A stretch of 64,000 nt of DNA from NCBI RefSeq assembly GCF_001245615.1, contig NZ_CWKH01000001.1, forward strand, positions 1,860,001-1,924,000, read 5' to 3'. A model generated the notes under the pieces. That model had not been told where the DNA came from. It searched no databases and was given only the letters and a program-made list of their open reading frames with translations. Made by a program: the position numbers and the translations under genes. Within the stretch, counting starts at the first letter, position 1; each line of letters starts with the position of its first letter. Shown here piece by piece: positions 5,303-50,340 of this stretch. Source of the stretch: Mycolicibacterium neworleansense. GTDB lineage: Bacteria > Actinomycetota > Actinomycetes > Mycobacteriales > Mycobacteriaceae.

Positions 5303-7645
5303 TCAGTCCGTTCGGACGAAACCGTTGGTACGAGCGAATTCCTCACTGGCGAACCAGATCTCGGCCACCGCGTCGTCGTACTCACTGCTGTCGGGTGCCC
5401 AGTACCGGCCGGACTTCGTGTCTGCCTTGATCGGGTAGCCCTCCGGCGCGCGGTTCGGGTCTTCCAGCGGTAGGTGGATTGCCGTGGCGCTGGGGATCTC
5501 CTCGAGTTCGATGGCCGCGTGACGCCCGCTGTGCGTCTCGCTGCTGTACGCCTCGGCCTCGGTGATGACGCGGGTCGGAGCGGTGTCGACATTGTCCTGA
5601 TCGTTCGGCGCGGCAAAGCCGCCCAGCGCCGCGAAAGCTGACGCCCCGCTCACGCCGCCCGGCGGACTGACGAGCGCCCCGGTGTCGGCCAGGTCCTCAT
5701 CCGCGAGCTCCGCTTCGATCTCGACATCGGCGTCGTCGCCCTCGGCGACCTCCTCGAAGTCCGCGTCGATGGGGGTGTCGAGGTCCTCGTCGTCGAAGTC
5801 CTCGTCATCGAAGTCATCCTCTTCGAAGTCGTCGTCCTCGAAGTCGTCATCGTCTTGATAGCCGTCGTCTTCGTAGCCGTCGAAGCCGCGGTCCGGCGCC
5901 GGGCCGGCCAGGCGCGGGGAATCCTCGGGCGGCTCATCGTCCTCACCCGGCGATCGGTACCCGCCGGCCGAACCCTGTGGAGCGGCCCACTGACTGACCG
6001 GCATGGCGATGTCGGTGGGACCGTCGTACGGGGACGCCGCAGCCCCGGACTCGTCGGCCGGTCCGGCGAATCGCGCCGTCGTGGCTTCACCGGCACCGTA
6101 AGCGCCACCCGGCCGGTAGCCGCCCACCGCCTCGCCGCCGCCCTCATCTTCGAATTCGTCGCGGTCGTACCCGCGCGATTCGTAGCGCGCCTCGTCGTAG
6201 CGGCTGTCGTCATAGCGTGAGTCCCCGGGCCCGCCGTCGTCGTAGTCATCGTCGAACGGATCGCGGTCGAAATCGTCATCACCACCGGCCCGGCGGCGGT
6301 GCCACAGCGCGGCCCCGACGATCAGACCTGCCAGCAGCAGCACCGGGACCACCGCGATCAGCCACCACCAGCTCCAGTGCCAGGTGAACGGCTTCTTGGT
6401 GTCACCGGTCGAGGGTTGCGGACCGCCGGCATGCGGCTGTCCGAGACCCGGAATCTGCAGGCCGCTCAACTCGGAGGCGAGCTTGGAGGGTTCGGTGGTG
6501 AACTTGTTGGCCTCGCGATCCCAGGAGATCGCTCCCCCGCTGAACCGCTGACTGATCACCGAACCGTCTTCGGTCTGGTCGGCCATCGGGGCGCCCAGTG
6601 CACCCTTGGCCCCGCCCAGCTTGTCCCAGGCCGCCTTCATCGCGCCTCGGACGATCACTGCGCCGTAGTCGGGGGTCCAGAAGATGACGGGTTCGTCGGC
6701 CGCGGCGAAGGTGCTGATCCGGCTGTTGGGTCCGAGGCCGCCCTCGGACTCGCTGGCGGTCGGGAAACCCAGATCGCCTTCGGGGCCGCCGACGCTTTCG
6801 TACTTCTCCAGCAGTTGACCGGTGACGGCGTTGGCCCCGGTGGCCGGACTGTAGAAGATCTTGCCGCCGGCGTAGTTCTGGCCCAGCCCGTCGTTGCCGA
6901 TCGGATATTGGTCACCGTCCTTGGCGCCCAGCGGGCCCATCGGCCCGCCCGCCGCGCGGCGAGCCGCGGCGATCGCCGCGGCCGGGTCCGAAGGGACGTC
7001 CAGACCGGCGAGCTGATCGGCCAGTTCCGGCGGCACCGTGGTGAACGCCTTGGTCTTGCGGTTCCAGGAAATCTCACCGCCGGTGAACTTCTGGGAAATC
7101 ACATCGCCGTCGAACGACTCGTCGTCGGCCGGGACGCCCAGCACTCCGGCGGACCCGCCGAGCTTGTCCCACGCGGCGTTGATCGCACCCCGGACCACCC
7201 GGGCACCGGTGGCCGGGGTCCAGAAGATGACGGGGTTGTCAGGCGCGCTCAACGTCGAGTTGCGGCTGTCGGCAGCCCGGCCCGCGCCCTCGTCGATGGT
7301 GGGGAATCCCAGATCGCCGTCGGCGGCGCCGCCCAACGACTCGTACTTCTCCAGAATCGCGCCCTGCATGAAGTGGGCGCCGGTCGCCGGCGTGAAGAAC
7401 ATCTTGCCGCCGGCGAAGTTCTGCGCGAAGCCCGAACCCACTGCGTACACGCCGCCCTGCCGCGGTCCGAGCGGCCCGCCGTCACCGCCGTTGGCTTCCC
7501 AGGCGGCGACGATCGCCGCGTCGGCATCGGACTCCGGGGTGGCCGAAGCCACCGCCGGCACCGTCAAAGCAGCGACCACGAGTGCGAGCAGGCCGACCGC
7601 CAACCGCCACACGGCCGCGTTCAGCCTCGCTCCAGGCCTAGTCAT
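5303..7645 (-). CDS. LGFP-repeat, single-pass membrane protein with acidic cytoplasmic tail (Rv2721c-like)
   Basis: A 780-residue envelope protein. An N-terminal signal/anchor (hydrophobic residues about 13-33, ending AVASA) is followed by two tandem copies of a roughly 180-residue module, each with LGFP-type repeats (DLGFPT, GVLGVPADD, GALGAPMAD, FTGGEISW and FSGGAISW). Then come a Trp-rich membrane helix near residues 430-455 (WSWWWLIAVVPVLLLAGLIV), a very acidic Asp/Glu/Gly tail of about 240 residues and a short ordered end (GRYWAPDSSEYDDAV). LGFP repeats are thought to anchor actinobacterial proteins to the mycolyl-arabinogalactan layer. The ATG at 7645 has GGGAGGGC just upstream. It is convergent with lexA. 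Confidence 0.82.
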   Translation of the reverse strand: MTRPGARLNAAVWRLAVGLLALVVAALTVPAVASATPESDADAAIVAAWEANGGDGGPLGPRQGGVYAVGSGFAQNFAGGKMFFTPATGAHFMQGAILEKYESLGGAADGDLGFPTIDEGAGRAADSRNSTLSAPDNPVIFWTPATGARVVRGAINAAWDKLGGSAGVLGVPADDESFDGDVISQKFTGGEISWNRKTKAFTTVPPELADQLAGLDVPSDPAAAIAAARRAAGGPMGPLGAKDGDQYPIGNDGLGQNYAGGKIFYSPATGANAVTGQLLEKYESVGGPEGDLGFPTASESEGGLGPNSRISTFAAADEPVIFWTPDYGAVIVRGAMKAAWDKLGGAKGALGAPMADQTEDGSVISQRFSGGAISWDREANKFTTEPSKLASELSGLQIPGLGQPHAGGPQPSTGDTKKPFTWHWSWWWLIAVVPVLLLAGLIVGAALWHRRRAGGDDDFDRDPFDDDYDDGGPGDSRYDDSRYDEARYESRGYDRDEFEDEGGGEAVGGYRPGGAYGAGEATTARFAGPADESGAAASPYDGPTDIAMPVSQWAAPQGSAGGYRSPGEDDEPPEDSPRLAGPAPDRGFDGYEDDGYQDDDDFEDDDFEEDDFDDEDFDDEDLDTPIDADFEEVAEGDDADVEIEAELADEDLADTGALVSPPGGVSGASAFAALGGFAAPNDQDNVDTAPTRVITEAEAYSSETHSGRHAAIELEEIPSATAIHLPLEDPNRAPEGYPIKADTKSGRYWAPDSSEYDDAVAEIWFASEEFARTNGFVRTD

Positions 7646-18807: not shown

Positions 18808-19593
18808 ATGGGGAGCCCCGGCGCGCAGCCGCAGGTCGATGATGCAGCACCGGCAGATGTGCCGATGATCTCACTGTCGGGAGTCAACAAGCACTTCGGA
18901 GCACTGCACGTTCTCAAAGACATCAACCTCGATGTGGGCCGCGGCCAGGTGGTGGTGGTCCTCGGGCCCTCGGGTTCGGGCAAGTCCACGTTGTGCCGCA
19001 CGATCAATCGGCTGGAGACCATCGACTCCGGCAGCATCGCGGTCGACGGCGAGACGCTGCCGGCCGAGGGCCGCAAGCTGGCCCAGCTCCGCTCGGACGT
19101 CGGCATGGTGTTCCAGTCCTTCAACCTGTTCGCGCACAAGACGATCCTGGAGAACGTCACGCTCGCGCCGGTGAAGGTGCGCCGGAAGTCCAAGGCCGAA
19201 GCCCGGGAGAAGGCGATGGCCCTGCTCGACCGTGTCGGGGTGGCCAATCAGGCCGACAAGTACCCGGCGCAGCTGTCCGGCGGCCAGCAGCAACGCGTCG
19301 CGATCGCCCGGTCGCTGGCGATGAACCCGAAGGTCATGCTGTTCGACGAGCCGACCAGCGCCCTGGATCCCGAGATGATCAACGAGGTTCTGGCGGTGAT
19401 GACCTCCCTGGCCGGCGAGGGCATGACGATGGTGGTGGTCACCCACGAGATGGGGTTCGCCCGGCGTGCATCGGACCGGGTGGTGTTCATGGCCGACGGC
19501 ACCATCGTCGAGGACGCGCCGCCGGCCGAGTTCTTCGACAATCCGAAATCGGATCGCGCCAAAGATTTTCTCGGCAAAATCCTTCATCACTGA
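18808..19593 (+). CDS. gluA: Glutamate ABC transporter ATP-binding protein GluA
   Basis: A 261-residue ABC ATPase of the polar-amino-acid type. Walker A is GPSGSGKST, the signature is LSGGQQQR, Walker B is VMLFDEP and the switch histidine lies in [10 protein letters not shown]. It energises import of glutamate (or a related amino acid) with GluB, GluC and GluD encoded immediately downstream. The specific substrate is inferred from gene order, which matches the gluABCD cluster of Corynebacterium and M. smegmatis. A -10 TAAGGT at 18794-18799 ends eight bases before the ATG, consistent with a leaderless start. The cluster is absent from this position in M. tuberculosis. Confidence 0.9.
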
Positions 19594-19617
19594 CGCTGTC
19601 CCGAAAGGAACCCGAAC

Positions 19618-20427
19618 ATGCCCGTGCCGTTCAAGTTGGTCGGTGCCCTCGCGCTCGCGATCGCCCTTCCCTTCGCCGCGACAGCCTGCGGCGGGGGTGA
19701 CGACGGCAACAAGATCGTCATCGGAACCAAGTACGACCAACCCGGTCTGGGCCAAAAGAACCCGGACGGCACCATGTCGGGATTCGACGTCGATGTGGCC
19801 CGGTACGTCGCCAAGGAACTCGGCTACACCGACGACCAGATCGAATGGAAGGAAGCGCCGTCCGCCCAGCGCGAGACGCTAATCCAGAACGATCAGGTCG
19901 ACTACATCGTCGCCACCTACTCGATCACCGACGCCCGCAAGGAGAAGGTCGACTTCGCCGGGCCGTACCTGTTGACCGGGCAGAGCCTGCTGGTGCGCGC
20001 CGACAACACCGACATCACCGGTGCGGCATCGCTGGAGAACAACAAGAAGCTGTGCTCGGTGTCCGGTTCGACGCCGGCGCAGCGGATCAAGGACGAGTAC
20101 CCCAAGGTGCAGTTGCAGCAGTACGACACCTACTCGCTGTGCCTCGAGGCACTCAAGAACGGCAACATCGATGCGCTGACCACCGATGAGGTGATCCTGG
20201 CCGGGTATGCCGCGCAGAGCCCCGGGACGTTCAAGATCGTCGGCGACACCTTCTCCGAGGAGCGCTACGGCATCGGGCTGAAGAAGGGCGACACCGAGTT
20301 GCGCAACAAGATCAACGACGCGATCGAGAAGATGGAGTCCAGCGGCGCCTGGAAGGAAGCGTTCGACAAGAACCTCGGGCCGGCCGGCATCCAGGCACCG
20401 ACGCCGCCGTCGGTCGACCGCAACTGA
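19618..20427 (+). CDS. gluB: Glutamate ABC transporter substrate-binding lipoprotein GluB
   Basis: A 269-residue family 3 solute-binding protein. A signal peptide (LVGALALAIALPFA) ends at a lipobox-type ATAC, which would leave a lipidated cysteine followed by a Gly/Asp linker. The ligand-binding fold includes GTKYDQPGLGQKNPDGTMSGFDVDVARY and the SITDARKEKVDFAGPYLLTGQ motif characteristic of amino-acid binders, with the arginine that contacts the substrate carboxylate. It captures glutamate outside the membrane and delivers it to GluCD. GAAAGGA lies about ten bases before the ATG, and the gene follows gluA after 24 bases. Confidence 0.88.
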   Translation: MPVPFKLVGALALAIALPFAATACGGGDDGNKIVIGTKYDQPGLGQKNPDGTMSGFDVDVARYVAKELGYTDDQIEWKEAPSAQRETLIQNDQVDYIVATYSITDARKEKVDFAGPYLLTGQSLLVRADNTDITGAASLENNKKLCSVSGSTPAQRIKDEYPKVQLQQYDTYSLCLEALKNGNIDALTTDEVILAGYAAQSPGTFKIVGDTFSEERYGIGLKKGDTELRNKINDAIEKMESSGAWKEAFDKNLGPAGIQAPTPPSVDRN

Positions 20428-20449
20428 GCGGCGAGGTAACGCTCCGGCC

Positions 20450-21130
20450 GTGGAGATCTTCACTCAATACCGCGACGAGATATTCGCGGCGTTCTGGACC
20501 ACCATCCAGCTGACGGTGTACTCCGCGGTCGGCGCACTCATTCTGGGTACCGTGCTGGCCGCCATGCGGCTCGCGCCCGTGCCGGTGCTGAACTGGCTCG
20601 GCACCGCATACGTCAACATTGTTCGCAACACCCCACTCACCCTGATCATCGTGTTCTGCTCGCTCGGGGTGGGACAGACTCTGCAGATCACCTTCACCGA
20701 CCCGGACTCACCAACCTCCATCGTGGACACCAATTTTCGGTTGGCTGTGCTCGGATTGACGGTCTACACGGCGTCATTCGTCTGTGAAACGATCCGGTCC
20801 GGGGTCAACACGGTCCCGTTGGGTCAGGCCGAAGCTGCGCGGTCACTCGGGTTGACCTTCGGGCAGAATCTGCGATTGATCCTGCTGCCCCAGGCATTTC
20901 GGGCGGTGATCATCCCGCTGGGTTCGGTACTGATCGCGTTGACGAAGAACACCACGATCGCCTCGGCGATCGGCGTGGCCGAGGCGGCACTGTTGATGAA
21001 GGAGATGATCGAGGACACCGCCGCGGTGCTCACCATCGGCGTCATCATGGCGGCCGGATTCATCCTGCTGACGTTGCCGCTGGGCTTGTTCTTCGGGTGG
21101 TTGGGTAAGCGAATGGCGGTGGCGCGGTGA
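20450..21130 (+). CDS. gluC: Glutamate ABC transporter permease GluC
   Basis: A 226-residue permease of the HisM/HisQ type with about five membrane helices. The EAA loop that contacts the ATPase is EAARSLGLTFGQNLRLILLPQAF. The start is a GTG 22 bases after gluB. The stop codon TGA at 21128-21130 overlaps by one base the ATG of the repeat-encoded mini-ORF that separates gluC from gluD. Confidence 0.9.
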   Translation: MEIFTQYRDEIFAAFWTTIQLTVYSAVGALILGTVLAAMRLAPVPVLNWLGTAYVNIVRNTPLTLIIVFCSLGVGQTLQITFTDPDSPTSIVDTNFRLAVLGLTVYTASFVCETIRSGVNTVPLGQAEAARSLGLTFGQNLRLILLPQAFRAVIIPLGSVLIALTKNTTIASAIGVAEAALLMKEMIEDTAAVLTIGVIMAAGFILLTLPLGLFFGWLGKRMAVAR

Positions 21131-21227
21131 TGAGCGCTTGCGCGAAGAACAGACAAGCACCGATGAGCGCTTGCGCGAAGAACAGACAAACACCGATGAG
21201 CGCTTGCGCGAAGAACGGACAAGCATG
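21129..21227 (+). repeat. Three tandem copies of a 33-bp repeat at the gluC-gluD junction
   Basis: Units start at 21129, 21162 and 21195. Each begins GATGAGCGCTTGCGCGAAGA and continues with ACNGACAANCA, with only single-base differences between copies. The 33-base period is a multiple of three, so all frames stay open through the array. The arrangement recalls MIRU-type mycobacterial repeats that sit between cotranscribed genes and overlap flanking stop and start codons. Confidence 0.85.
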
Positions 21228-21228
21228 A
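21130..21228 (+). CDS. Repeat-encoded 32-residue mini-ORF bridging gluC and gluD
   Basis: The array encodes three copies of an 11-residue unit, MSACAKNRQAP, MSACAKNRQTP and a final MSACAKNGQA. The first ATG overlaps the gluC stop (TGATG), and the TGA at 21226-21228 overlaps the gluD ATG (ATGA at 21225). Every unit brings its own ATG in frame, so ribosomes could re-initiate at any copy. Whether the peptide has a function is unknown; the geometry suggests translational coupling that sets the GluC:GluD ratio. A second open frame through the repeats would add a repeated Asp-Glu-Arg-Leu-Arg-Glu-Glu extension to the GluD N-terminus. Confidence 0.55.
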   Translation: MSACAKNRQAPMSACAKNRQTPMSACAKNGQA

Positions 21229-22121
21229 CGGGCGCCTCGGTCCTGTTCGACGCCCCGGGCCCGCGGGCCCGGGTCCGTAACCACGCGTTGACCGCGCTCA
21301 CGGTCGTCGCCGCCGGCGCGGCGATTGCCTTCGTGCTGTACCAACTCTGGGCCAAGGACCAGTTCCAGGGCGCGAAGTGGAAGCCATTTCTCACCTCGAA
21401 CCTGTGGACCACCTACGTCCTACCGGGTGTGCAGGGCACGCTGACGGCGGCGGGCATCTCGATCGTGTTGGCACTCGTGCTGGGCCTGCTGCTCGGGGTC
21501 GGCCGGTTGTCGCCCATTCCCCCGCTCCGGTGGCTCTGTGCGGTGATCGTGGAGTTCTTCCGCGCGGTGCCGGTGCTGGTCATGATGATCTTCGCGTACT
21601 TCCTCTACGGGATGTACGACCTGTTCCCGTCCAAGCACATCGCGCTGGCGGGCGTGATCACCGGCCTGACGCTCTACAACGGCGCCGTGATCGCCGAAAT
21701 CGTCCGGGCCGGCGTCAACTCTCTGCCCCGCGGCCAACAAGAAGCCGCGTGGTCACTCGGGATGACGTGGACTCAGACGATGCGGCTGATCCTGTTGCCT
21801 CAGGCGATCACGGCGATGCTGCCGGTGCTGGTGTCGCAGCTGGTGGTGGTGCTCAAGGACACCGCGATCGGCTATCAGATCACCTTCGTCGAGATGGTGC
21901 GGCAGGGCACGAATATCGGGTCTGCGTATACGAACATCCTGCCCGCACTGATCGTCATCGCAATCCTGATGATCAGCGTCAACTTCGCACTGTCGGTATT
22001 GGCCACGCGGATCGAACGCCGGTTGCGCCGCTCCAGTCGTGGGCCCGCACCGTTGGAGGCCGAGGCCGTCGAGCAGGAAGGCGCACCGGGCGCGCAGGTA
22101 TTGCACACCCAACGGGACTGA
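21225..22121 (+). CDS. gluD: Glutamate ABC transporter permease GluD
   Basis: A 298-residue permease of the HisM/HisQ type with membrane helices from about residue 25 onward and an EAA loop QEAAWSLGMTWTQTMRLILLPQA. It pairs with GluC as the membrane channel. The ATG at 21225 is chosen because it gives the normal short N-terminus (MTGASVLFDAPGP) and overlaps the stop of the repeat-encoded mini-ORF. An in-frame start at 21138 would add 29 repeat-derived residues. The C-terminal 35 residues are hydrophilic. Confidence 0.88.
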   Translation: MTGASVLFDAPGPRARVRNHALTALTVVAAGAAIAFVLYQLWAKDQFQGAKWKPFLTSNLWTTYVLPGVQGTLTAAGISIVLALVLGLLLGVGRLSPIPPLRWLCAVIVEFFRAVPVLVMMIFAYFLYGMYDLFPSKHIALAGVITGLTLYNGAVIAEIVRAGVNSLPRGQQEAAWSLGMTWTQTMRLILLPQAITAMLPVLVSQLVVVLKDTAIGYQITFVEMVRQGTNIGSAYTNILPALIVIAILMISVNFALSVLATRIERRLRRSSRGPAPLEAEAVEQEGAPGAQVLHTQRD

Positions 22122-29999: not shown

Positions 30000-32401
30000 T
30001 CAGAACTCGTCCGGATCATCGTCGGCGTCGGCGCCGTTGGCGTCGGCCCCGCCGCGGATCAACATCAAGGTGCCGGCCAGTTCGTCGGGCTTGACGAGCA
30101 CCTCGCGCGCCTTCGAACCTTCCGACGGGCCGACGATGCCGCGGGTTTCCATCAGGTCCATCAGGCGGCCGGCCTTGGCGAAGCCGACGCGAAGCTTGCG
30201 CTGCAGCATCGAGGTGGACCCGAATTGCGAGGACACCACGAGCTCGACGGCCTGCAGGAACACGTCCATGTCGTCGCCGATGTCCGGGTCGACGTCCTTG
30301 CGCTCACCGGCCTTGGCCGCGGTGACGCCCTCGACGAACTCGGGTTCGGCCTGCGACTTGGTGGCCTCGACGACGGCGTGGATCTCCTCGTCGGTGATGA
30401 ACGCGCCCTGCATACGCAGCGGCTTGTTGGCACCCATCGGCAGGAACAGGCCATCGCCCATACCGATCAGCTTCTCGGCGCCGGGCTGGTCGAGGATGAC
30501 GCGGCTGTCGGTCAGTGACGAGGTGGCGAACGCCAGCCGGGACGGCACGTTGGTCTTGATCAGACCGGTGACGACGTCCACCGACGGTCGCTGCGTGGCC
30601 AGCACCAGGTGGATGCCGGCGGCGCGGGCCTTCTGCGTGATGCGCACGATGGCGTCCTCGACGTCACGCGGCGCGGTCATCATGAGGTCGGCGAGCTCGT
30701 CGACGATGGCCAGGATGTAGGGGTAGGGCTTGTAGACCCGCTCGCTGCCCAGCGGCGTGCTGATCTCGCCCGAACGCACCTTCTCGTTGAACACGTCGAT
30801 GTGACGCACCCGGGACGCCTTCATGTCCTGGTAGCGCTGCTCCATCTCCTCGACCAACCACGCCAGCGCGGCGGCGGCCTTCTTGGGCTCGGTGATGATG
30901 GGCGTGATGAGGTGCGGAATGCCTTCATACGGCGTGAGTTCCACCATCTTGGGGTCGATCAGGATCATCCTGACCTCCTCGGGGGTGGCCCGCGCCAGGA
31001 GCGACACCAGCATCGAATTGACGAAGCTGGACTTACCGGAGCCGGTGGAGCCGGCCACCAGCAGGTGCGGCATCTTGGCCAGGTTGGCCGAGACGAAGTC
31101 GCCTTCGATGTCCTTGCCCAGGCCGATCACCAACGGGTGGTGGTCGCGGCGCGTCGACGGCGCGGTGAGCACGTCCGAGAGCCGGACCATCTCTCGGTCG
31201 GTGTTGGGCACCTCGATGCCGACGGCGGACTTGCCGGGGATCGGAGCGAGCATGCGGACGCTCTCGGTGGCCACCGCGTAGGCGATGTTGCGGTGCAGCG
31301 CGGTGATCTTCTCGACCTTGACGCCGGGGCCGAGTTCGACCTCGTAACGCGTGACGGTCGGCCCACGGGTGCACCCGGTGACGGCGGCGTCGACCTTGAA
31401 CTGCTCGAGGACCGAGGTGATGGCGTCGGTCATCTGATCGTTGGCGGCGGTACGCAGCTTCGGCGGATCGCCGGCGATCAGCAGATCCAGCGGGGGCAGC
31501 GTGTAGGGACCCTCGACCACCCGGTCCATCACCAGGGTGTCGTCGGTCTTCGGCTTGCTCTCGGCCTTCTTGCGGCGCGGCTTGACCGCGGGCTCGGGGA
31601 TGGTCGGGGCGTCCTCCGACAGCGGGTAGTTGTCCATCGGGGTGCCGGTGGGCGCCTTGGGTGCCTCGATGGCCGGCGTCGGCCAGGCCTGGGCCGGTGT
31701 GTCGCCGCGCGAGGTGTCGTCGTCGTAGTAGCCGTCTGACAGATCGTCGTAGGCGTCGTCGTCCTCGTACTCGTCGGCGTAGTCCCCGTCGTATTCGTCG
31801 TCGTAGTCATCGTCGCGGAACACCCGGGTGCTGAACATCGTCCGCAGCGTCGATGGCACCTCGCGAATCGTCGTCCCGGTGACCAGCAGCAGGCCGAACA
31901 GCACGCCCATGAACAACAGCGGCGCGGCGATCCACTGGGTCAGTCCGTCCGAAAGCGGCCCGCCGATGGCGAAGCCGATGAATCCGGCGGCGTGCTGGCG
32001 GGCGATGGGGTCCTGGGGCGAGCCCGACCACAGGTGCCACAGGCCGAGCATCGGCAGCGCGATCATGGCCGACCCCAGGATCAGCCGGGGGCGCGACTCC
32101 GGGTCGGGCTCGGTGCGCATCAGCACGACGGCGATGGCGCCGAGGATGACGGGCACCAGTACCACCGGGCCGCCGATCAAGGTGCGCACCGCGGTGTCGA
32201 TCCACTGGCCCACCGGGCCGGCTGCGTGGAACCAGGAGCTGGCGGCCACGACGACCGCGACGCCGAGCAATGCGAGCGCCACGGCTTCATCTCGGCCGGA
32301 CGAGCCGGGCGGGCCGGCGACTGACGCCGCGAGCCACTCCGCGAGCTGGCGTTTGACCTGCTCGAACGCGCTCCGGATCGGCCGGCGGTCTTGTTAGCCA
32401 T
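30000..32401 (-). CDS. ftsK: FtsK/SpoIIIE DNA translocase, apparent frameshift near the start
   Basis: The frame from 32393 to 30000 encodes the FtsK body: four membrane helices (first [17 protein letters not shown]), an acidic Asp/Tyr-rich linker, the alpha/beta motor with Walker [11 protein letters not shown] and Walker B MILIDPK, and the C-terminal gamma winged helix ([17 protein letters not shown]). It pumps chromosomal DNA through the closing septum. The natural start is the ATG at 32401 (MANKTA), followed in the correct frame by RRPIRSAF. The two parts are in different frames, joined near 32385 next to an Arg/Ser-rich segment that is longer in other mycobacteria. The only in-frame start without a shift is GTG at 32282. 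Deletion, indel or sequencing error are all possible. Confidence 0.85.
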
Positions 32402-50259: not shown

Positions 50260-50282
50260 ATCGTTCCCTAGAGCACCGACAA
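50260..50282 (-). promoter_or_regulatory. PafBC-type promoter candidate of the DNA glycosylase gene
   Basis: On the minus strand TTGTCGGTG (50274-50282), eight bases, then AACGAT (50260-50265) in place of TANNNT. The -35 motif and the spacing are exact; the -10 misses only its first T. The GTG start lies six bases downstream. Confidence 0.6.
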
Positions 50283-50340
50283 GTAGCGGAGCGGATTGGA
50301 GCGAGCGCACCGACAAGTAGCGGAGCGGATTGGAGCGATA
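50273..50340. repeat. Direct 34-bp repeat in the divergent promoter region
   Basis: Two copies, starting at 50273 and 50307, read GCACCGACAAGTAGCGGAGC followed by GGATTGGAGCGA. Each contains the complement of the TTGTCGGTG damage motif, but only the copy at 50273 has a -10-like hexamer at the right distance. The last bases of the second copy contribute to the start region of the rightward gene. Confidence 0.75.

What the first reader, a model, noticed from the sequence alone, without database searches (positions are those of the whole stretch)
21128..21228. Triplicated 33-bp repeat forms a mini-ORF that couples gluC to gluD
Three tandem 33-bp units fill the exact gap between the two permease genes of a transporter whose other genes are closely packed. 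The units encode three copies of an 11-residue unit starting MSACAKN. The first ATG overlaps the gluC stop (TGATG), and the final TGA overlaps the gluD ATG (ATGA). Each unit supplies another in-frame ATG. This is the geometry known for MIRU elements in mycobacterial operons, but the unit is shorter and differs in sequence. Copy number could tune GluC:GluD translation, and variable copy number between strains would make it a phase-like control.
Basis: partly seen in the sequence, partly recalled or inferred. Interest (0 to 1): 0.75.

Follow-up and report, generated by a model that had tools for sequence, protein, structure and literature searches.

The report
Mobile mini-gene bridging two transporter genes
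The triple repeat between two transporter genes is one copy of a short repeated element, scattered through many mycobacterial genomes, that sits where one gene's stop codon overlaps the next gene's start and carries its own start and stop, so that ribosomes can probably still pass from one gene to the next.

Summary
In detail: three 33-bp units (21129-21227) form a mini-ORF whose first ATG shares TGATG with the gluC stop and whose stop shares ATGA with the gluD start. It is one member of a dispersed family: the 17-nt core is in 98 of 148 genomes of the GTDB genus and a 19-nt form in 0 of 272 sampled genomes of 30 other genera of the family. Many other copies sit at stop/start overlaps, e.g. 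ilvB-ilvN and nuoD-nuoE; an empty/filled pair shows a 32-bp insertion. At gluC-gluD the unit is in 30 of 80 parsed junctions, 1-4 copies, with 22 filled/empty changes on the tree. A chain of overlapping stops and starts is kept in 79 of 80. It works like a MIRU by geometry, but is shorter, differs in sequence, and is largely complementary to MIRU-type repeats across 148 genus genomes (Spearman -0.77). Best reading: a second, short family of MIRU-like coupling elements. Translation of the mini-ORF and any tuning of GluC:GluD by copy number are untested.

The parts
20450..21130 (+). gluC, ABC permease; its TGA (21128-21130) is the upstream anchor
21127..21132 (+). GTG-ATG double start of the mini-ORF; GTGA and TGATG overlaps with the gluC stop
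21129..21161 (+). unit 1 (33 nt)
21162..21194 (+). unit 2 (33 nt, 97% to unit 1)
21195..21227 (+). unit 3 (33 nt, 91% to unit 1)
21130..21228 (+). mini-ORF of 32 codons, (MSACAKN...)x3, stop 21226-21228 overlapping the gluD ATG (ATGA)
   Evidence: translation in the cell not shown
21225..22121 (+). gluD, ABC permease, start ATG 21225 (MTGASVLFDA)
   Evidence: start supported by relatives without the element

Best explanation
The array is a copy of a dispersed, genus-restricted mini-element of about 32 nt (ATGAGCGCTTGCGCGAAGA plus a variable tail of about 13 nt). It sits where a gene's stop codon overlaps the next gene's start (ATGA or TGATG). Because it begins with its own ATGA and has a suitable length, it keeps a chain of overlaps: upstream stop, element start, element stop, downstream start. 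Shown: a dispersed family, the site geometry, a 32-bp empty/filled pair, repeated gain or loss and different tandem copy numbers at gluC-gluD, and a kept chain of overlaps there. Inferred: that ribosomes ending on gluC re-initiate on the mini-ORF and again on gluD; that the element is tolerated because coupling survives; that the three 33-nt copies arose by tandem duplication of one unit and are read through as one mini-ORF; and that an unknown machinery, not encoded by so short an element, moves it.
For: Dispersed, not chance: 28 hits with at most 1 mismatch in the own genome, 0 for the reversed control; exact 17-mer in 98 of 148 genus genomes, 0 control hits; 0 of 272 sampled genomes of 30 other genera of the family. 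Geometry: first unit ATG overlaps the upstream stop at +1 or -2 in 57 of 75 loci with an upstream gene call; overlapping downstream start in 44 and in-frame fusion in 6 of 70 with a downstream call. Insertion: G020 and G000 differ at ilvB-ilvN by 32 bp within TGATGAGC. Turnover: 22 filled/empty changes on 80 rows, at least 15 forced by starred branches. Chain of overlaps kept at gluC-gluD in 79 of 80, including 37 of 37 with an insert; the distance from last unit ATG to gluD start is 29, 32, 35 or 47 nt, all 2 mod 3, in 30 of 30. Tandem spacings: 3 of 96 are 1 mod 3, the class that would break the chain.
Against: 18 of 75 loci with an upstream call and 20 of 70 with a downstream call do not show the overlap geometry; in the own genome 13 of 24 distinct loci show it on both sides, fusions counted. 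Gene calls were made by my script, not by annotation. The chain is not a strict test: it survives 54% of simulated 1-nt indels and 78% of shuffles of the insert, and the rows are related. A 32-nt master copy explains much of the spacing pattern. No direct evidence of translation; no machinery found. L139 has no overlap at all (TAAGTG).
Confidence: 0.75

Rival explanations
1. Adaptive rheostat: copy number at gluC-gluD is selected to set the GluC:GluD ratio, with tandem slippage as a phase-like switch.
For: Copy number differs from 0 to 4 among related species; close pairs differ (L077 2 units, L081 0; L084 2, L085 1). For another mycobacterial tandem repeat a paper reports a link between repeat length and expression (PMC2734929, abstract and passages).
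Against: The element is generic and dispersed; presence on the gluC-gluD tree is close to random (22 changes, shuffled mean 24.4). No expression data.
Confidence: 0.12
2. The unit acts mainly as a portable ribosome-binding site for the downstream gene (purine-rich tail), and the mini-ORF is incidental.
For: 25 of 44 loci with an overlapping downstream start have GGAG, AGGA or GAGG in the tail of the last unit, 14 more a weaker GGA, GAG or AGG.
Against: 5 of 44 have none. It does not explain the frame-dependent lengths or the overlap with the upstream stop. The window's last unit has only the weak GGA.
Confidence: 0.2
3. GluD is really read from further upstream through the array as an N-terminal extension.
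For: The gluD frame is open through the array up to a TTG at 21138; at another site units are read in that frame as a protein N-terminus (L016, L154).
Against: Relatives without the element start gluD at the position of ATG 21225; where the element has another tail length gluD is reached by an overlapping stop and start.
Confidence: 0.03
4. It is a true member of the MIRU family, a shortened MIRU.
For: Same geometry. Units align to the 3' half of a MIRU-type unit better than background: 12 of 36 score 14 or more, against 1.2% of 3559 background segments ending in ATGA and 1.9% of the 533 with a ribosome-binding-site-like motif.
Against: 32-33 nt instead of 53-77; a MIRU core finds nothing in the own genome at 2 mismatches; the window's third unit does not align better than shuffles (828 of 1000 as good); units share one core, so the 36 are not independent.
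Confidence: 0.2

Closest known systems
MIRU (mycobacterial interspersed repetitive units; Supply et al. 1997, seen only as a reference; described in PMC12548453, passages; lengths from PMC4213456, passages)
   Same: Dispersed and tandem in mycobacteria; an internal ORF coupled to the downstream gene by a 4-nt overlap; insertion at start codons.
   Different: Unit of 30-33 nt as a rule against 53 and 77; other sequence and peptide (MSACAK... against MTRAGDDAERSDEEERR in the MIRU-type unit of L187); largely complementary distribution in the genus.
Translational coupling at ATGA/TGATG gene pairs by termination-reinitiation (PMC6728339, abstract and passages)
   Same: The same stop/start overlaps; subunit pairs such as ilvB-ilvN and nuoD-nuoE (domains).
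   Different: Here the coupling passes through one or more inserted mini-cistrons.
Rickettsia palindromic elements (recalled, from no call)
   Same: Short repeats that insert without destroying coding.
   Different: Those lie inside genes and are palindromic (recalled); here no RNA structure beyond shuffles and sites at gene junctions.

Membership tests
MIRU | Dispersed at many loci of a mycobacterial genome | tested here: met
   28 hits in the own genome; 98 of 148 genus genomes
MIRU | Inserted at start codons, internal ORF coupled to the downstream gene, -4 spacing (PMC12548453) | tested here: met
   Overlapping downstream start in 44 of 70 loci with a downstream call, of which -1 offset (ATGA-type) 32 and +2 (TGATG-type) 12; window and gluC-gluD relatives
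MIRU | Tandem copies that vary in number | tested here: met
   Tandem pairs in 172 of 396 genus genomes; 0-4 copies among species at gluC-gluD; variation between strains not tested in general
MIRU | Unit length 53 or 77 bp | tested here: not met
   33 nt in the window; 26-35 nt among 93 listed arrays, 32 and 33 most frequent
MIRU | MIRU sequence | tested here: inconclusive
   A MIRU core recalled from memory is absent from the own genome, but the 3' half of a MIRU-type unit resembles many units beyond background, not the window's third one
Structured (palindromic) interspersed repeats such as REP | Stable stem-loop | tested here: not met
   Fold z-scores -0.13, -0.62, +0.29 for three stretches of the window; other copies not folded

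The most novel reading that the evidence does not exclude
Mycobacteria carry two sequence-distinct families of spreading mini-cistrons, MIRU-type and this MSACAK-type, that occupy largely separate lineages. An unknown machinery targets stop/start overlaps and reproduces the overlap at both ends of the insert (left and right overlap types agree in 30 of 40 loci, Fisher p 0.003). Translational coupling sites would then be the target of a mobile element.
Probability: 0.35. Interest if true: 0.8.

Novelty: new variant of a known kind. Interest (0 to 1): 0.6.

Why it matters
It extends the MIRU idea to lineages where MIRU-type repeats are few or absent, and offers many natural insertions with orthologous empty sites. 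That makes two open questions testable: how such elements spread, and whether termination-reinitiation can be relayed through several mini-cistrons. The arrays might also serve as strain-typing markers (inference). Not found in print as far as searched: the 17-mer, two other core strings and MSACAK occur in 0 papers of the held library; among the listings and abstract starts I recognised no description of it. Supplementary files and most subscription papers were not searchable.

Tried and rejected
RNA structure: none beyond shuffles. Plasmid or phage carriage: no plasmid match; one weak phage match (28 nt, E 0.9) taken as chance. Competition between the two element families as the cause of their exclusion: on a recA tree of 30 chosen genomes (13 rich in this unit, 12 rich in MIRU-type, 5 mixed, low or with neither) the labels need 4 changes against 11.6 in shuffles, so the pattern is mainly lineage history; the tree has 7 starred of 27 inner branches. 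A plain target-site duplication: the bases before the two ATGs match more than in shuffles (mean run 1.83 against 1.27, 0 of 2000 shuffles as high), but only over 2-3 nt, and 10 of 40 loci have mixed overlap types.

Rows dropped before counts: L098 was not parsed at gluC-gluD, so 79 of 80 fetched loci plus the window were used; 10 of 92 loci were dropped by my script's duplicate filter (one search lists them); one search used the 150 pairs printed, from 24 of the 172 genomes with pairs; one search used the first 148 of the 396 genomes; one search scored the 36 loci with a suitable tail length. One search kept the best 80 of 152 matching loci.

Full report
What is there. The window holds a four-gene polar amino-acid ABC transporter (18808-22121; NCBIfam hits below the equivalog cut-offs). 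Its two permease genes are separated by three 33-nt units at 21129-21227. They encode MSACAKNRQAPMSACAKNRQTPMSACAKNGQA*. The first ATG (21130) shares TGATG with the gluC stop; the stop (21226-21228) shares ATGA with the gluD start; a GTG at 21127 is also in frame.

It is not unique to this place. GAGCGCTYGCGCGAAGA has 28 hits with at most one mismatch in the own 6.29-Mb genome and none for the reversed control. The exact 17-mer GAGCGCTTGCGCGAAGA is in 98 of 148 genomes of the GTDB genus, up to 66 copies, with 0 control hits. Tandem pairs are in 172 of 396 genus genomes. In the family, 20 of 301 genomes have ATGAGCGCTYGCGCGAAGA: 20 of the 29 drawn from the own genus and 0 of 272 from 30 other genera. 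Higher ranks were not searched. There was no plasmid match, and one weak phage match that looks like chance.

Where copies sit. For 82 distinct loci (own genome and other genus genomes; the first places that the searches returned, not a random sample) I called flanking genes by long open frames with high GC3. The upstream stop is at +1 (ATGA, 35 loci) or -2 (TGATG, 22 loci) of the first unit ATG: 57 of 75 with an upstream call. Downstream, a start codon overlaps the stop of the last unit in 44 of 70 with a downstream call; 6 are in-frame fusions and 20 have another geometry. In the own genome alone, 16 of 24 distinct loci have the upstream overlap, and 13 have both sides, fusions counted. Pfam domains of five own-genome site pairs fit ilvB-ilvN (L020), nuoD-nuoE (L022), two cysD-cysN pairs (L028, L031) and a permease pair (L032); the gene names are my recognition from these domains and the translations.

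Empty and filled sites (read by eye). At ilvB-ilvN, 29 of 30 chosen genomes gave a locus: 4 carry a unit (G000, G063, G079, G037), 25 do not and are TGATG (18), TAATG (3) or ATGA (4) overlaps. G020 (empty) and G000 (filled) differ by 32 bp within TGATGAGC. At nuoD-nuoE, 6 of 30 carry the unit (G000, G079, G002, G082, G123, G090); G142 has another insert, read as two chained mini-ORFs, and G009 a short insert without a recognisable unit; of the other 22, two (G087, G063) are TAG-GTG without overlap and the rest have RTGA at the gene end. The ten unit-bearing cases are all in genomes rich in this element; the 12 MIRU-rich genomes have none (11 of them with a locus at ilvB-ilvN).

The gluC-gluD junction. 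From 80 named loci and the window, 80 junctions were parsed; L098 was dropped. The unit (up to 4 mismatches; 27 of 30 with at most one) is present in 30: 23 with one copy, 5 with two, one (the window) with three, one with four. A tree from gluC and gluD body sequence needs 22 changes between filled and empty (shuffled mean 24.4, 82 of 500 shuffles as low; at least 15 forced by starred branches), so presence is nearly independent of descent. The nearest row, M. houstonense L073, is empty; two M. peregrinum records have 2 and 0 units. Tracing overlapping stops and starts, 42 junctions are direct overlaps, 37 pass through mini-cistrons (30 with the unit, 7 with other or eroded inserts), and one, L139 (TAAGTG), has no overlap. 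The distance from the last unit ATG to gluD is 32 (19), 29 (9), 35 (1) or 47 nt (1): 30 of 30 are 2 mod 3. Controls: a simulated 1-nt indel leaves a chain in 3858 of 7200 trials and a shuffle of the insert in 5793 of 7400. The force of the result thus lies in the lengths, and shared descent weakens it.

Spacing. Among 93 arrays from the 150 pairs listed, distinct spacings per array are 32 (62), 33 (25), 30 (3), 31 (3) and 26, 29, 35 (1 each): 3 of 96 are 1 mod 3, the class in which a unit's frame neither stops at the next ATGA nor continues in frame. A 32-nt master copy explains the bulk; 33 over 31 (25 against 3, p 3e-5) does not follow from that alone, though duplicated or related arrays are counted.

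How it probably works. Ribosomes finishing gluC re-initiate at the overlapping ATG (or GTG), read the mini-ORF, stop on TGA and re-initiate on the gluD ATG that begins one base earlier. At 33-nt spacing the units fuse into one mini-ORF; at 32-nt spacing each unit ends at the next unit's overlap. The element therefore spares the operon. This is inferred from geometry and from published coupling at such overlaps (PMC6728339, abstract and passages). Whether copy number changes GluC:GluD is open; the scattered presence argues against a conserved regulatory role.

Comparison with MIRU. A 2025 review says that MIRUs appear mobile, insert at start codons and couple an internal ORF to the downstream gene with -4 spacing (PMC12548453, passages); 77- and 53-bp units, and the statement that the senX3-regX3 MIRUs occur only in M. 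leprae and the tuberculosis complex, are in PMC4213456 (passages). A MIRU core that I recalled from memory, with up to 2 mismatches, hits 187 of 396 genus genomes and not the own one; listed tandem cases are mostly 46-57 nt apart, and L187 shows a 53-nt unit with an ORF that ends TGATG. That this is the MIRU of the literature is recalled, not tested. The string is also part of a primer designed on repeats of M. intracellulare (PMC10117815, passage). A recA tree of 30 chosen genomes shows that this mostly follows lineage. Many units resemble the 3' half of the MIRU-type unit beyond background, but the window's third unit does not; common origin is possible, not shown.

Verdict. The finding is best filed as a new, short, genus-restricted family of MIRU-like coupling elements.

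Noticed in passing
window 50273-50338: A perfect 34-bp tandem duplication (1.9 copies), sequence seen; not the unit of this report.
   Followed up: partly
window 5777-5882 and 31716-31815: Imperfect short-period tandem repeats, 15 to 33 bp and 3 to 24 bp, possibly inside coding sequence.
   Followed up: no
L111, gluC-gluD junction: A different insert of about 90 nt with terminal inverted repeats CGCGAGCAGAC / GTCTGCTCGCG; it also forms a mini-ORF that keeps the chain of overlaps.
   Followed up: partly
L016 and L154: Here the unit lies behind ATGGAT and is read in another frame (MDERLRED...), apparently as a protein N-terminus, in L154 three times over.
   Followed up: no
L226-L236 (recA of several genus genomes): RecA is split in long open frames (725-835 aa) in eleven of 30 genomes, as expected of inteins (intein nature inferred).
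   Followed up: no
L096, L126, L129: Metagenome bins titled Acidobacteria or Bifidobacterium breve carry a mycobacterial gluC-gluD stretch, probably mis-binned.
   Followed up: no
L273 (G142, nuoD-nuoE): An insert unrelated to the unit that reads as two chained mini-ORFs before nuoE (by eye).
   Followed up: no
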